From Halorussus salilacus (GTDB lineage: Archaea > Halobacteriota > Halobacteria > Halobacteriales > Haladaptataceae), in NCBI RefSeq assembly GCF_024138125.1, contig NZ_CP099993.1, forward strand, positions 2,294,001-2,358,000: DNA of 64,000 nt, written 5' to 3'. Shown here piece after piece: positions 14,974 to 59,622 of this stretch; the stretch's first letter is position 1, and every line of letters begins with the position of its first letter. The notes below the pieces were generated by a model. That model saw only the letters and a list, made by a program, of their open reading frames with translations. It did no database searches and had not been told where the DNA came from. Both the position numbers and the translations under genes were made by a program.

Positions 14974-15026
14974 GCGCCCGACCGACTGTTCCACGGAAAC
15001 GCCCGCCCGACCAATCCTCGGGGTGG

Positions 15027-15152
15027 GACTGAAAGGGGCCGCCCGCTCGCGGGCCGAAGGCCCGTGGTCGTCTCAGCGACCCCTATCTCGGCCGGGCGGT
15101 GCGGAGAGGCCGAGATATGTCGCTGAGCGACCGCGAGCGGGCGGGGGCTTTC
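15027..15152 (+). repeat. Structured repeat family 1, copy 1
   Basis: The element begins GACTGAAAGGGG and ends GGGGGCTTTC. Outer stem: 15031-15035 (GAAAG) with 15148-15152 (CTTTC), then a perfect 14-bp stem 15039-15052 with 15131-15144. Inside are a GGCC-GAA-GGCC hairpin, an 8-bp stem (15072-15079 with 15120-15127) and a 10-bp stem (15084-15093 with 15108-15117). The copy at 59275-59398 has the same outline with different paired bases. It could be a non-coding RNA or a non-autonomous mobile element. Together with the next repeat it fills the 429-bp gap after the restriction gene; I see no protein here. Confidence 0.7.
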
Positions 15153-15186
15153 GAAGACGTATTCTTCGATAGCAACTGAGAACTCT

Positions 15187-15367
15187 GATTCGACCAGCGA
15201 GAAGCTAGCTACTCCCGGTACCTAGGAGAACCGCACAGCACCGCGACCGCAAGCCTCGGGCCTCCCCAACCGCCTGCGGTCCTCGGTCGCTCTGCTCCCT
15301 GCGGTCCTCAGCCCTCGCGCGCCTTGGCGCGACCTCAAACAGCAAGGTCGCGCCAGCGCGCGCCGAG
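15187..15367 (-). repeat. Dispersed repeat family 2, copy A
   Basis: Read on the minus strand, this copy starts with a GC-rich hairpin (9-bp arms 15326-15334 and 15346-15354 around a loop ending GTTTGAG on that strand) and ends with a core of about 95 nt (15187-15282) containing CGGTGCTGTGCGGT, CTAGGTACCGGGAGTAGCTAG and CTTCTCGCTGGTCGAA. The core is about 90 percent identical by eye to that of the copy at 49603-49795. There is no open frame conserved between copies. Confidence 0.75.
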
Positions 15368-15402
15368 GTGGATAGTCAATCGAGTGCGGTAGGAGGGTTC
15401 GA

Positions 15403-15890: not shown

Positions 15891-16301
15891 ATGACAGGTA
15901 CCGACCGGACCGATTGGGAACGAATCGCCCGCCAGACGCTGTGGCAGTCGCTGGTTCGCCTCGGCGAGGACGCCAGCAGGACCACCGAGGAGGTCGCCGA
16001 CGCGCTCTACTGGGGTAACGACCTCGACCCCGAGCAGGTCGAGCGCATGCGACGGGCCGCCTTCGACCTCCGGTACGTCACCGAGGAGTACCTCGCGCGC
16101 CTCTGTGCGGGGACCGACCCGTGGGACGACGCCGACGACGCGCGGACTCCCTCGTGGCACCCCACCGAGGGGCCGATGCCGGACGACTCCGAGGGCCCGG
16201 ACGACTCCGAGGGCCCGGACGACTCCGAGGACTCGGACGACTCCGAGGACTCGGACGACCCCGAGGACTCGGACGACCCCGAGGACTCGGACACGAACTG
16301 A
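15891..16301 (+). CDS. Haloarchaeal protein with an Asp/Ser-repeat tail
   Basis: A 136-residue protein. The first 80 residues look like a compact helical domain (D-W-E-R-I-A-R-Q-T-L-W-Q-S-L-V-R-L-G, then L-D-P-E-Q-V-E-R-M-R-R-A-A-F-D-L). From about residue 96 the chain consists of short repeats of D-D-S-E-G-P, D-D-S-E-D-S and D-D-P-E-D-S, encoded by an almost exact DNA tandem repeat (16186-16290, period 15 nt). The start at 15891 is chosen because the helical domain begins there; the open frame further upstream overlaps the promoter of the divergent repressor. Function unknown. Confidence 0.65.
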   Translation: MTGTDRTDWERIARQTLWQSLVRLGEDASRTTEEVADALYWGNDLDPEQVERMRRAAFDLRYVTEEYLARLCAGTDPWDDADDARTPSWHPTEGPMPDDSEGPDDSEGPDDSEDSDDSEDSDDPEDSDDPEDSDTN

Positions 16302-16355
16302 CCTCCCGAACGAATCGCGGGGTGACCCGCATTTCCGACGTTTCGACACGCATCG

Positions 16356-16906: not shown

Positions 16907-16940
16907 ACTCGGAGGTAGGGGCGCGAGGAGGTTAGGTGTT

Positions 16941-17017
16941 GTCGCGTGGCCGGTCCGGCGGTCGTCGCGGGGCTGGTCCGGCGGTCGTCGCGTGGCCGGT
17001 CCGACCGTCGTCGCGGG
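16941..17017. repeat. 23-nt tandem repeat upstream of secF
   Basis: About three imperfect copies of a 23-nt GC-rich unit (GTCGTCGCG followed by GGCYGGTCCG) lie between the divergent gene at 16906 and secF. The secF promoter with ACACTTATCC at about 17063-17072 follows. The repeat is non-coding. Confidence 0.6.
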
Positions 17018-17098
17018 GGCGTTCGACGGACTTCCTTTCCGACTGCGCGAAAACGGATAAGAACACTTATCCACGGCCGACCCACATTCCTCACCCAT

Positions 17099-30535: not shown

Positions 30536-30605
30536 TTCGGGTTCGAGGACGACTGATTCGGGTTCGAGGATGACTGATTCGGGTTCGAGGATGACTGATT
30601 CGGGT
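30536..30605. repeat. 21-nt tandem repeat upstream of pdxS
   Basis: Three copies of a 21-nt unit (TTCGGGTTCGAGGAYGACTGA) run from 30536 to 30598, with a partial fourth copy. Read on the minus strand it gives E-S-V-I-L-E-P repeats in a short open frame that ends at the pdxS start; I regard that frame as incidental. Confidence 0.7.
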
Positions 30606-30648: not shown

Positions 30649-30988
30649 CGCTAGCTACTGGCGTCACCTATGAGAAAGAAGCCCTCACTCGGCGAGCGCG
30701 CCGCAACGCGGCGCGCTGTCCTCGTTCGCCCTTCATCCGCCGAGGCATCCCCGTTCCTCCCCGCAGGCGGCGCACTCGTGCGCCGCCTGCGCGTCCCGTG
30801 GTCCGGTTGGCCTGCGAAACGCCGTTCCCGTCCGGGCCTCCGCGGTCAGGATGCACTCGCGCGCCTCCGAGAGGCGCGCGAGTGGGGAGGGACGGGGGCG
30901 CGGTGCGGTTGGGGTGCGGTCGCGGTGCGGTTGGGGTGCTGTGCGGTGCGGTCCTCACAGGTGTCGGGAGTAGCTAGCGTCTCGGCGG
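30649..30988 (+). repeat. Dispersed repeat family 2, copy C (MITE-like)
   Basis: The segment is bounded by an exact 11-bp inverted repeat, CGCTAGCTACT (30649-30659) and its complement (30969-30979). Within it are three perfect hairpins: 30695-30717 (10-bp arms), 30763-30790 (13-bp arms) and 30855-30883 (12-bp arms). It ends with GGTGCTGTGCGGT and GGGAGTAGCTAGC, shared with the cores at 15187 and 49708. No conserved protein is encoded. With the tandem repeat it explains the 646-bp gap between pdxS and the DUF1405 gene. Confidence 0.65.
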
Positions 30989-49602: not shown

Positions 49603-49795
49603 GCTCGGCGCGCGCTGGCGCGGTCTCGCGGTTTGAGGCCGCGCCATCGTTCGCGCGAGGGATGAGTATCGCAGGCGACGAACGAAGTGAGTCGCCGAGA
49701 AACGCAGTCGGTTGGGGAGGTTCGTGGCTTGCGGCCGCGGTGCTGTGCGGTCTTCTAGGTACCGGGAGTAGCTAGCTTCTCGCTGGTCGAACAGT
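49603..49795 (+). repeat. Dispersed repeat family 2, copy B
   Basis: It starts with CTCGGCGCGCGCTGGCGCGG and a hairpin (49616-49623 with 49639-49646, loop containing GTTTGAG), followed by a second hairpin (GGCGAC with GTCGCC, about 49675-49697), and ends with the core at 49708-49795 (GGTGCTGTGCGGT, CTAGGTACCGGGAGTAGCTAG, CTTCTCGCTGGTCGAA). The core matches copy A almost base for base. Most of the 470-bp gap from 49437 to 49907 is this repeat; the part before it (49437-49602) shows nothing I recognise. Confidence 0.75.
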
Positions 49796-57289: not shown

Positions 57290-59185
57290 CTACGGTGAAA
57301 ATCCGGGACGGGACGTGAACCGGCCGACATCCGACAGCACGGATTCGAGCGCTCGCACGCCCTCCTTGTCGGTCCGGTCGGGGTTCGCCAGCACCCGGAC
57401 CGTCTCGACGCCGACGGGCACGAAGCCCAGACCCAGCTTCTCGGCGGTCGCGCGCAGGCCGAGTCCGGCGTCGGCCTGCCCGCCAGCGACCTTCCGCGCG
57501 GGGCTCTCGTGGGCCTTCGCCGAGAGTTCGAAGCCGTCGATGGCCTCGACGAGGTCGCGACGCGAGACGCCTCTGTCGTCGGCGAGGTCGGCGAGAGCGT
57601 TCCCGAGGTTCGTCCGGAGGCCCGAGTCGGTCCCGCGGTTGACGAACCGTAGGTCGCGGTCGACGAGGTCGGCGAGGCCCTCGACTTCCTCGGGGTTCCC
57701 GCTCGCGACGACCAGCCCCCACTCGCGCTCGTAGGAGCCGAGTTCCTCGGCGGAGAGCGACCCGCGAGCGGGTCGCTCTCCGCCGTCCGCGGTCGTCACC
57801 GCGAAGTCGGCCACGCCGTCGCGGAGCCGACGCAGGCCCTGCCGGGACCCGACCGCGAGGTAGCGCGGCCGGTCGAGTTCGTCGAGCAGGCGCGCCAGCA
57901 CGGGGTCGTCCTCGCCGACGCCCAGCACCGAGGGCGGGCGCACGTCGGGCGAGAACAGTTCGACCGCGACCGCCTCGCCCTCCGCGACGTAGGCGGTGTC
58001 GGGAGCCACCTCGGCCACGCCGTCGGCCTCGACGAGGCTGGTGGTCGCGCCGCTCCCCTTGTCGACGGCGTAGGCGAGGAGGTCTCCCTCGCCGTCCTCG
58101 ACCAGTCCCACGGGCATCAGCCGCATCCGACCCTCGTCGAAGCGCTCCTCGGCGGCCATCCGGGCCTCGACGGTCGCGGTCGCTGGTTCGGGGAGTCCGG
58201 CGGCGTCTCGGATCGCGGGCGCGACGAACGTCCGGAAGATGGTCAGCGCCGAGACGGGGTAGCCCGGCAGGCCGACGTAGGCGGAGTTATCGAGCCGCCC
58301 CACCAGCATCGGCTTGCCGGGCTTGACCGCGACGCCGTGGAGCAGGAGTTCCCCGCGCTCCTCGACGACCCGGTAAATCACGTCCACCGCGCTCGCGCTG
58401 GTCGAACCGGACGAGAGCACGAGGTCGCACTCGTCGGCGGCCTCTCTGAGAACGCGCTCCATCTCGTCGTAGTCGTCGCCCGCGTGGGGGTAGAGCCGGG
58501 GGTCGCCGCCCGCCTCCTCGACCGCGGTCGCGACGGTGTAGCTGTTGACGTCGTATATCTGGCCCGCGGCGCTGTTCAGTCGCTCGCCGGGCCGGACCAG
58601 CTCGTCGCCGGTCGAGACGATGCCGACCGTCGGCTTCCCGACGACCGGCACCGACTCGACGCCGAGCGCCGACAGCAGGCCGACCTCGCGGGGCGTGAGT
58701 CGGGTCCCGGGGCCGAGCGCGCGCTCCCCGGCGGCCACGTCCGCGCCCGCGAGCATTACGTGGTCGCCCGGCGCAACCGCGGTTCGGACCAGCACGTCGT
58801 CGCCGTCCTCTTCCGTTCGCTCGACCATCACCACGGCGTCGCCGCCGGGCGGCATCACCGCGCCGGTCGAGATTTCGACCGCTTCGCCCTCGCCGACCTC
58901 CACGTCGGGCTCCTCGCCCGCGTGGACCGCTCCGGCGAGCGAGAGCCTCGCGGGGTCGGCCTCGTCGGCCCCGAAGGTGTCCCGGGCCCGGACCGCGTAG
59001 CCGTCCATGCTCGCGCGGTCGAACCCCGGCACGTCGAGGTCGGCGTCGATCCGCTCGGCGAGGATTCGGCCCCGGGCGTCCCGAAGGGGGACCTCCTCGG
59101 GGTCGGGCGCGAGGTCGAGGCTGGCGATGGCGTCGCGGGCGTCTTCGGGCGGTGCGAGGTCTCGGAACTCCTTTCTGTCGGTCAT
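57290..59185 (-). CDS. MoeA fused to a substrate-binding domain
   Basis: A 631-residue two-part protein. Residues 1 to about 400 are MoeA: A-S-M-D-G-Y-A-V-R-A, P-P-G-G-D-A-V-V-M-V-E, S-S-G-S-T-S-A-S-A-V-D and L-P-G-Y-P-V-S-A cover the molybdate-insertion site. The C-terminal part (about 410-631; V-G-S-R-Q-G-L-R-R, A-V-T-T-A-D-G-G-E and L-G-L-R-A-T-A-E-K-L-G-L-G-F-V-P-V-G) is a periplasmic-binding-protein-like domain, as in MoeA-LysR-type fusions that may bind molybdate or tungstate. A second, unfused moeA is 0.5 kb upstream. Confidence 0.92.
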   Translation of the reverse strand: MTDRKEFRDLAPPEDARDAIASLDLAPDPEEVPLRDARGRILAERIDADLDVPGFDRASMDGYAVRARDTFGADEADPARLSLAGAVHAGEEPDVEVGEGEAVEISTGAVMPPGGDAVVMVERTEEDGDDVLVRTAVAPGDHVMLAGADVAAGERALGPGTRLTPREVGLLSALGVESVPVVGKPTVGIVSTGDELVRPGERLNSAAGQIYDVNSYTVATAVEEAGGDPRLYPHAGDDYDEMERVLREAADECDLVLSSGSTSASAVDVIYRVVEERGELLLHGVAVKPGKPMLVGRLDNSAYVGLPGYPVSALTIFRTFVAPAIRDAAGLPEPATATVEARMAAEERFDEGRMRLMPVGLVEDGEGDLLAYAVDKGSGATTSLVEADGVAEVAPDTAYVAEGEAVAVELFSPDVRPPSVLGVGEDDPVLARLLDELDRPRYLAVGSRQGLRRLRDGVADFAVTTADGGERPARGSLSAEELGSYEREWGLVVASGNPEEVEGLADLVDRDLRFVNRGTDSGLRTNLGNALADLADDRGVSRRDLVEAIDGFELSAKAHESPARKVAGGQADAGLGLRATAEKLGLGFVPVGVETVRVLANPDRTDKEGVRALESVLSDVGRFTSRPGFSP

Positions 59186-59274: not shown

Positions 59275-59398
59275 GAAAGCCCCCGGGCGCTCGCGGTCGT
59301 TGCGCGGCATCTCTGCGCCTCTCAGCAACGCCCGGCGCAGAGAGGGGCCGCGCAAGCGACCACGGCCTTCGGCCGCGAGCGCCCGGCCCCTTTCAGTC
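59275..59398 (-). repeat. Structured repeat family 1, copy 2
   Basis: On the minus strand it starts GACTGAAAGGGG and ends GGGGGCTTTC, as copy 1 at 15027. Stems: GAAAG/CTTTC at the ends (59275-59279 with 59390-59394), a perfect 14-bp stem (59283-59296 with 59373-59386), a 9-bp stem (59300-59308 with 59347-59355) and a 9-bp stem (59311-59319 with 59334-59342). The paired bases differ from copy 1 but remain complementary. It lies in the 493-bp gap between the two moeA genes. Confidence 0.7.
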
Positions 59399-59488
59399 CC
59401 GCCCGACAGTCTGCTCCACCGGCACGAAACCGTGGCCGGTGACGCTCTCCGCGGAGTATCGTGCCGGTCGGTCAGCCGCCCCTTGGCG

Positions 59489-59622
59489 GACTGAAAGGGC
59501 GAGCGCGCTCGACCGGCCCCCGGCGAAGTAAGCACCGCGGAAGCCCGGAACGGCGCGAAGCGCCGCACGCCCGGAACGCGGCGCGCAACGAGTCGCGGGC
59601 CGTCGAGCGTTCGAGGGCTTTC
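59489..59622 (+). repeat. Structured repeat family 1, copy 3 (divergent)
   Basis: It starts GACTGAAAGGG and ends GAGGGCTTTC like the other copies. An inner stem pairs 59506-59513 with 59602-59609, and the central part contains a GGCGC-GAA-GCGCC hairpin. The interior is unlike copies 1 and 2. It shares the moeA gap with copy 2, in the opposite orientation. Confidence 0.5.

What the first reader, a model, noticed from the sequence alone, without database searches (positions are those of the whole stretch)
15027..15152. A repeat family whose stems covary between copies
Copies at 15027-15152 (+) and 59275-59398 (-) share both ends (GACTGAAAGGGG and GGGGGCTTTC) and the same nested stems. In copy 1 the 14-bp outer stem is 15039-15052 with 15131-15144, and in copy 2 it is 59283-59296 with 59373-59386; the inner stems of 8-10 bp also match in position but differ in sequence. 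Paired changes that keep complementarity mean the fold is under selection, as in a functional RNA or a mobile DNA hairpin element. Both copies are intergenic with no conserved open frame. I know of no published family that it matches.
Basis: seen in the sequence. Interest (0 to 1): 0.8.

Follow-up and report, generated by a model that had tools for sequence, protein, structure and literature searches.

The report
Haloarchaeal nested-hairpin repeat, plasmid-linked
The two matching hairpins belong to an undescribed family of about 110 folded DNA repeats in this salt-loving archaeon, with relatives across a third of sampled haloarchaea; their arms stay perfectly complementary in a way that points to DNA rather than RNA, and one copy sits at a fixed place beside a DNA-binding-protein gene on many megaplasmids.

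Summary
The two copies are members of a family with 109 hits in this Halorussus genome. Identical ends recur in 97 of 292 class genomes, with no hit for the reversed control. Covariation is real: 22 of 38 pairs change on both sides, and none of 500 shuffles reaches that. But G-U pairs (0.6%) and one-sided changes (10 against 324 two-sided) are far rarer than in RNase P RNA of the same genus (6%; 46 against 81). That argues for maintenance as DNA, so "functional RNA" is not supported as stated. New here: the 3' arm recurs downstream as 54/57-nt tandem units; site and orientation are conserved against H. amylolyticus while inner stems are replaced; and one element lies 400-740 nt upstream of an RPA-like OB-fold gene on plasmids, 22 of 22 in the same orientation. 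Best reading: an archaeal REP/SMR-like hairpin DNA element with no known mobiliser. A cis role in mRNA is not excluded.

The parts
15020..15152 (+). Copy 1, type-a element: GGGTGGGACTGAAAGGGG ... GGGGGCTTTC
   Evidence: 139.8 bits with model R1; left boundary from duplicated pairs
15030..15035 (+). Copy 1 foot stem, pairs with 15148-15153; encloses the invariant GGG/GGG internal loop
   Evidence: loop invariant or nearly so in 77 copies
15039..15050 (+).
15051..15063 (+). Copy 1 side hairpin GGGCC-GAA-GGCCC
15066..15080 (+). Copy 1 middle stem, pairs with 15119-15132
   Evidence: among the most variable paired positions
15084..15117 (+). Copy 1 apical stem (15084-15093 with 15108-15117) with conserved loop GGGCGGTGCGGAGAG
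59275..59406 (-). Copy 2, type-a element, about 90 nt upstream of the moeA-like gene that starts at 59183 on the - strand
   Evidence: 132.3 bits; orthologue in G010 (L333) with compensated differences
59488..59622 (+). Third copy, type b, same ends with a different inner domain (GAAGTAAGCACCGC...GCGCAACGAG)

Best explanation
It is a palindromic DNA element of haloarchaea, in behaviour closest to the REP/SMR kind of non-autonomous repeat. Shown: a discrete unit starting at GGGYGGGACTGAAAG and ending at GGGGGCTTTC (often plus tandem 3'-arm units) has been copied to many intergenic sites; arms are kept as Watson-Crick palindromes while unpaired motifs at the foot (GGA, GGG/GGG) are invariant; interiors are exchangeable (type a, type b, minimal). 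Inferred: the foot and apical loop are recognised, as a single-stranded or extruded DNA hairpin, by an unidentified trans-acting factor that copies or converts the unit; this copying, rather than selection for an RNA, keeps the arms matched. A version at a fixed position beside an RPA-like OB-fold gene on megaplasmids is probably the functional or ancestral setting, with chromosomal copies as dispersed relatives, some possibly exapted upstream of genes.
For: 22 of 38 pairs with two-sided change, 0 of 500 shuffles; G-U 0.6% and one-sided:two-sided 10:324, against 6% and 46:81 in RNase P RNA of the genus. L025 and L101, at distant loci, are 97% identical over 195 nt starting at CGGGYGGGACTG with unrelated left flanks; the two L095 copies behave likewise. 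Inner hairpins at orthologous sites are 0.715 identical, against 0.676 for random pairs. Double-hairpin insertions in stems and loops. Copy number 0 to at least 54 among congeners, 109 in this genome. No conserved promoter-like sequence upstream. Plasmid position: 22 of 22 in the same orientation at -401 to -737.
Against: No mobiliser was found, and no exact empty site or target duplication was shown. About 20 of 45 copies are retained at orthologous sites, 20 of 22 site pairs in the same orientation, which is slow for a parasite. The sense bias (35:12; 17:6 in the relative) is easier to explain by a role in mRNA. The G-U comparison counts related sequences as if independent.
Confidence: 0.5

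Rival explanations
1. It is a cis-acting RNA structure in the 5' or intercistronic region of mRNAs, affecting stability or expression of the downstream gene, spread by duplication and kept by selection at sites where it is useful.
For: Mostly 100-200 nt upstream of a gene in sense orientation; codirectional pairs 35:12 (p 0.001) and 17:6 in H. amylolyticus; among the relative's shared sites, by subtraction, about 10 sense to 1 antisense; site and orientation conserved; the moeA orthologous copies are alignable where the surrounding spacer is not.
Against: Near absence of G-U and of one-sided intermediates; fold interrupted by insertions; no conserved promoter; copies between convergent genes; a congener (G008) with no model hit.
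Confidence: 0.25
2. It is the cis site of a plasmid function (replication start, single-strand initiation or transfer) served by the adjacent RPA-like protein; chromosomal copies are remnants of integrated plasmids or decoys.
For: One element at a fixed position and orientation beside the OB-fold gene, with either inner type, in Haloarcula, Haladaptatus and Halorussus, further cases in Halorientalis and Halopiger; a separate hairpin with the same GGGCGGTGCKGAGAG loop lies between gene and element in several.
Against: Chromosomal copy number does not follow presence of the OB gene (G016 and G023 many copies, no gene found; G008 no copy, two genes); more distant OB homologues lack the element; function of the locus untested.
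Confidence: 0.15
3. Neutral palindrome upkeep: replication template switching makes the arms perfect without any function, and drift and recombination do the rest.
For: Explains two-sided changes and absence of G-U.
Against: Unpaired foot positions are invariant while stems vary; ends conserved across the class; fixed plasmid position.
Confidence: 0.08

Closest known systems
Small mobile repeats (SMR-A) of Haloquadratum walsbyi (PMC3119063)
   Same: Haloarchaeal, about 110 bp, inverted ends unrelated to a known transposon, no transposase, tens of copies, unknown mobilisation, habit of combining with other palindromes
   Different: SMR copies are commonly over 95% identical; here stems differ between nearly all copies. 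Our element is mainly the target of such insertions. Tandem 3'-arm units and the plasmid position are not described for SMRs. Sequence relation to SMRs was not tested.
REP/REPIN/BIME elements mobilised by RAYTs (PMC3733652, PMC3116915)
   Same: Intergenic imperfect hairpins, many copies, strand-specific foot, head-to-head pairs, mosaics with other hairpin units
   Different: Larger and multi-stemmed, no GTAG/CGTC tag, and Y1 transposases absent from several high-copy genomes
PATE / IS605 ends (PMC3119063)
   Same: Palindrome-based, haloarchaeal, no transposase in the short forms
   Different: Own IS605 copies have other ends and no element nearby
CRISPR arrays
   Same: 23-nt repeats alternating with 31/34-nt variable segments downstream of some copies
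   Different: Variable segments are homologous to each other, often tandemly duplicated, with no match beyond chance in the 420 kb searched

Membership tests
REP/REPIN with RAYT | Cognate Y1 (RAYT-type) transposase in genomes that carry the repeats | tested here: not met
   PF01797 not found in G010, G001, G002, G003, G009, G016, G023, each with 34 or more copies
REP/REPIN with RAYT | GTAG or CGTC tag at the hairpin foot | tested here: not met
   Foot is GGGYGGGACT / CTTTC
REP/REPIN with RAYT | Short intergenic hairpins, high copy, inverted pairs | tested here: met
   109 hits; head-to-head pairs in other genera
Haloquadratum SMR-A | About 110 bp with inverted ends, no coding capacity, tens of copies | tested here: met
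Haloquadratum SMR-A | High identity between copies of one type (commonly over 95%) | tested here: not met
   Inner region 0.67 identical between copies of the genome
Haloquadratum SMR-A | Insertion into palindromes of PATE/IS605 elements | tested here: inconclusive
   Here the element is itself interrupted by hairpin elements; its own targets were not resolved
MITE | Terminal inverted repeats matching a known transposon, with target duplication | not tested
   No empty site resolved; no transposon with these ends was looked for systematically
Known structured RNA (Rfam) | Match to a curated covariance model | tested here: not met
   No match at gathering level in the window, or at E <= 5 for copy 1
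Functional RNA in general | Stem evolution with G-U intermediates as in a bona fide RNA of the same genus | tested here: not met
   0.6% against 6.0% G-U; 10:324 against 46:81 one- to two-sided changes
Functional RNA in general | Transcript | not testable with these tools
   No RNA-seq available
CRISPR array | Unique spacers matching foreign or self DNA, cas genes nearby | tested here: not met
   Spacers homologous and duplicated, no matches beyond chance in 420 kb; cas genes not searched

The most novel reading that the evidence does not exclude
A class-wide haloarchaeal plasmid module, in which an RPA-like OB-fold protein acts with a structured single-strand hairpin site (foot GGGACTGAAAGGGG...GGGGGCTTTC plus a GGGCGGTGCKGAGAG loop) in plasmid replication or transfer, and whose hairpin has colonised chromosomes as a self-copying, interior-swapping repeat.
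Probability: 0.2. Interest if true: 0.85.

Novelty: new variant of a known kind. Interest (0 to 1): 0.62.

Why it matters
It shows that strong covariation, usually read as proof of a functional RNA, can come from a DNA palindrome, and offers a simple discriminator (G-U and one-sided changes against an RNA of the same genus). It adds a widespread archaeal counterpart to bacterial REP elements with no known mobiliser, and points to a conserved structured site beside an RPA-like gene on haloarchaeal megaplasmids that can be tested genetically in Haloarcula.

Tried and rejected
Pseudoknot AGGGG/CCCCT seen in the two window copies: rejected, many copies have CAAC there. RAYT/IS605 mobilisation: rejected as a requirement. 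CRISPR-like guide array: rejected. Coding tandem units: all six frames carry stops in some units. OB-fold protein as the driver of chromosomal copies: no correlation. G-quadruplex from four G tracts: dropped, because copies with CGGTCGGACTG lack them. Presence in phages: none in the collection searched. Papers on haloarchaeal repeats: only the Haloquadratum study was close; a search for the plasmid locus found nothing on it.

Full report
Observation. A pattern of the ends gave 62 places in the genome and none for the reversed control. A covariance model built from 29 copies gave 109 hits at E <= 0.01. The window holds a third, divergent copy with the same ends at 59488-59622. Nothing in Rfam matches. 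The genus is Halorussus: contig lengths of the relative G010 equal those of H. amylolyticus YC93 records.

Anatomy. Consensus, 5' to 3': GGGYGGGACT, foot stem GAAAG/CTTTC, an unpaired GGG/GGG loop (five of its six positions invariant, the sixth 90%), an outer stem of about 12 bp, a variable side hairpin or loop, a middle stem, a UAU/AUA joint, and an apical stem with loop GGGCKKUGCKGAGAG. Conservation starts abruptly at the GGG on the left. On the left many copies carry tandem 26-28-nt hairpin units (CCGGTG-ACACARTC-CACCGG), others a different structured repeat. On the right the 3' arm recurs: 31- or 34-nt variable segments followed by GTAGCGAGCGGGCGGGGGCTTTC, one to seven units, in 39 of the 93 copies parsed. 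Minimal hairpins and a second inner type (b) with the same ends exist. Modules combine widely: 74 distinct combinations in 77 copies, with neighbouring inner modules partly linked.

Covariation and what it means. On 77 copies, 98.8% of cells pair, 22 of 38 pairs have two-sided changes, and all measures exceed 500 shuffles and slid controls; the structure was derived from some of these sequences, so the slid control is favourable to it. As a yardstick I used RNase P RNA from 18 Halorussus genomes. There G-U pairs are 6.0% and one-sided to two-sided changes 46:81; in the element they are 0.6% and 10:324 (cells are not independent, so the very small p values should not be taken literally). An RNA under selection passes through G-U; a palindrome maintained or replaced as DNA need not. 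Unpaired foot bases are invariant while stems vary, which pure palindrome repair would not predict.

Mobility and turnover. Copies L025 and L101, far apart, are 97% identical over 195 nt beginning at CGGGYGGGACTG, with unrelated left flanks; two copies in L095 behave likewise. Against H. amylolyticus, 20 of 45 elements sit at the orthologous intergenic site of one of ours (the 45 are the best-scoring ones, not a random sample), and 20 of 22 site pairs keep orientation, yet inner hairpins at the same site are only 0.715 identical, against 0.676 for random pairs. Only copy 2 (85%) and L133 (88%) look orthologous throughout. Copy 2 and its orthologue differ by compensated pairs. At the moeA site some congeners have a short empty spacer, and G009 has what looks like a collapsed remnant of the type-b copy. 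About ten copies are interrupted by a separate double-hairpin element in stems or loop.

Context. With a codon-usage gene caller of my own, almost all copies are intergenic; arrangement upstream|downstream relative to the element is +|+ 35, -|+ 28, +|- 18, -|- 12, and in the relative 17, 13, 6, 6. Median distance to a sense downstream gene is about 150 nt. The bias is real but modest, and is the best evidence for a role in cis. No promoter-like sequence precedes the element.

Distribution. The exact ends occur in 97 of 292 class genomes and 39 of 77 genera, with zero control matches, outside the family mostly with type-b interiors. Type a is found on Haloarcula, Halorussus and Haladaptatus plasmids, and not in phages.

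Plasmid locus. The Haloarcula hits lie upstream of a divergent gene for a 318-408 aa OB-fold protein; its Haladaptatus relative matches the replication factor A models. Searching that protein in the family gave 30 loci. The strict model found an element near five of them at E < 1e-9. A wider end pattern, extended after seeing variants and so partly post hoc, finds one in 14 of 30 and in all 8 annotated plasmids, every one in the same orientation at -401 to -737; L354 and L367 appear to be the same locus, so distinct cases number 21. The density of chromosomal copies (about one per 33 kb) would give well under one. Two more Haloarcula plasmids and weaker cases in Halorientalis and Halopiger agree; distant OB homologues do not. 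A separate hairpin with the apical-loop motif lies between gene and element in several. The gene's presence does not track chromosomal copy number, so it is not shown to drive the repeats.

Conclusion. Shown: a real, widespread, structured repeat family with DNA-like stem evolution, discrete copied units, interchangeable interiors and a fixed plasmid position. Inferred: recognition as a DNA hairpin by an unidentified factor. Not settled: mobiliser, transcription, and whether retained chromosomal copies act on neighbouring genes.

Noticed in passing
15189-15370 (-), 49604-49791 (+), 30938-30984: A second structured repeat family (GGCGCGCGCTGGCGCG...GCGCGAGGGAYGAG...GGTTGGGGAGG...); in about 14 other copies of the genome it is fused directly to the left end of the element.
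   Followed up: partly
L120, L124, L138, L140 (loop); L135, L145, L147, L149, L151 (3' arm); L012, L143 (5' arm): A ~55-nt double-hairpin element (CCTCGYGAGCGRAGCGARYGAGG...GCGGTTTGC...) inserted at different points of the same hairpin.
   Followed up: partly
L335-L352: RNase P RNA of Halorussus ranges from about 370 to 526 nt because extra hairpins have accumulated in one variable region, most in H. amylolyticus.
   Followed up: no
L382 / G000:C3:150587-151474; Haloarcula plasmids L353-L364: RPA-like OB-fold gene with relatives on 129 haloarchaeal plasmids and a conserved structured upstream region of several hundred nt; function unknown.
   Followed up: partly
30536-30605, 16938-17018, 16162-16305: Short tandem repeats of 21, 23 and 9-18 nt in the window.
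   Followed up: no
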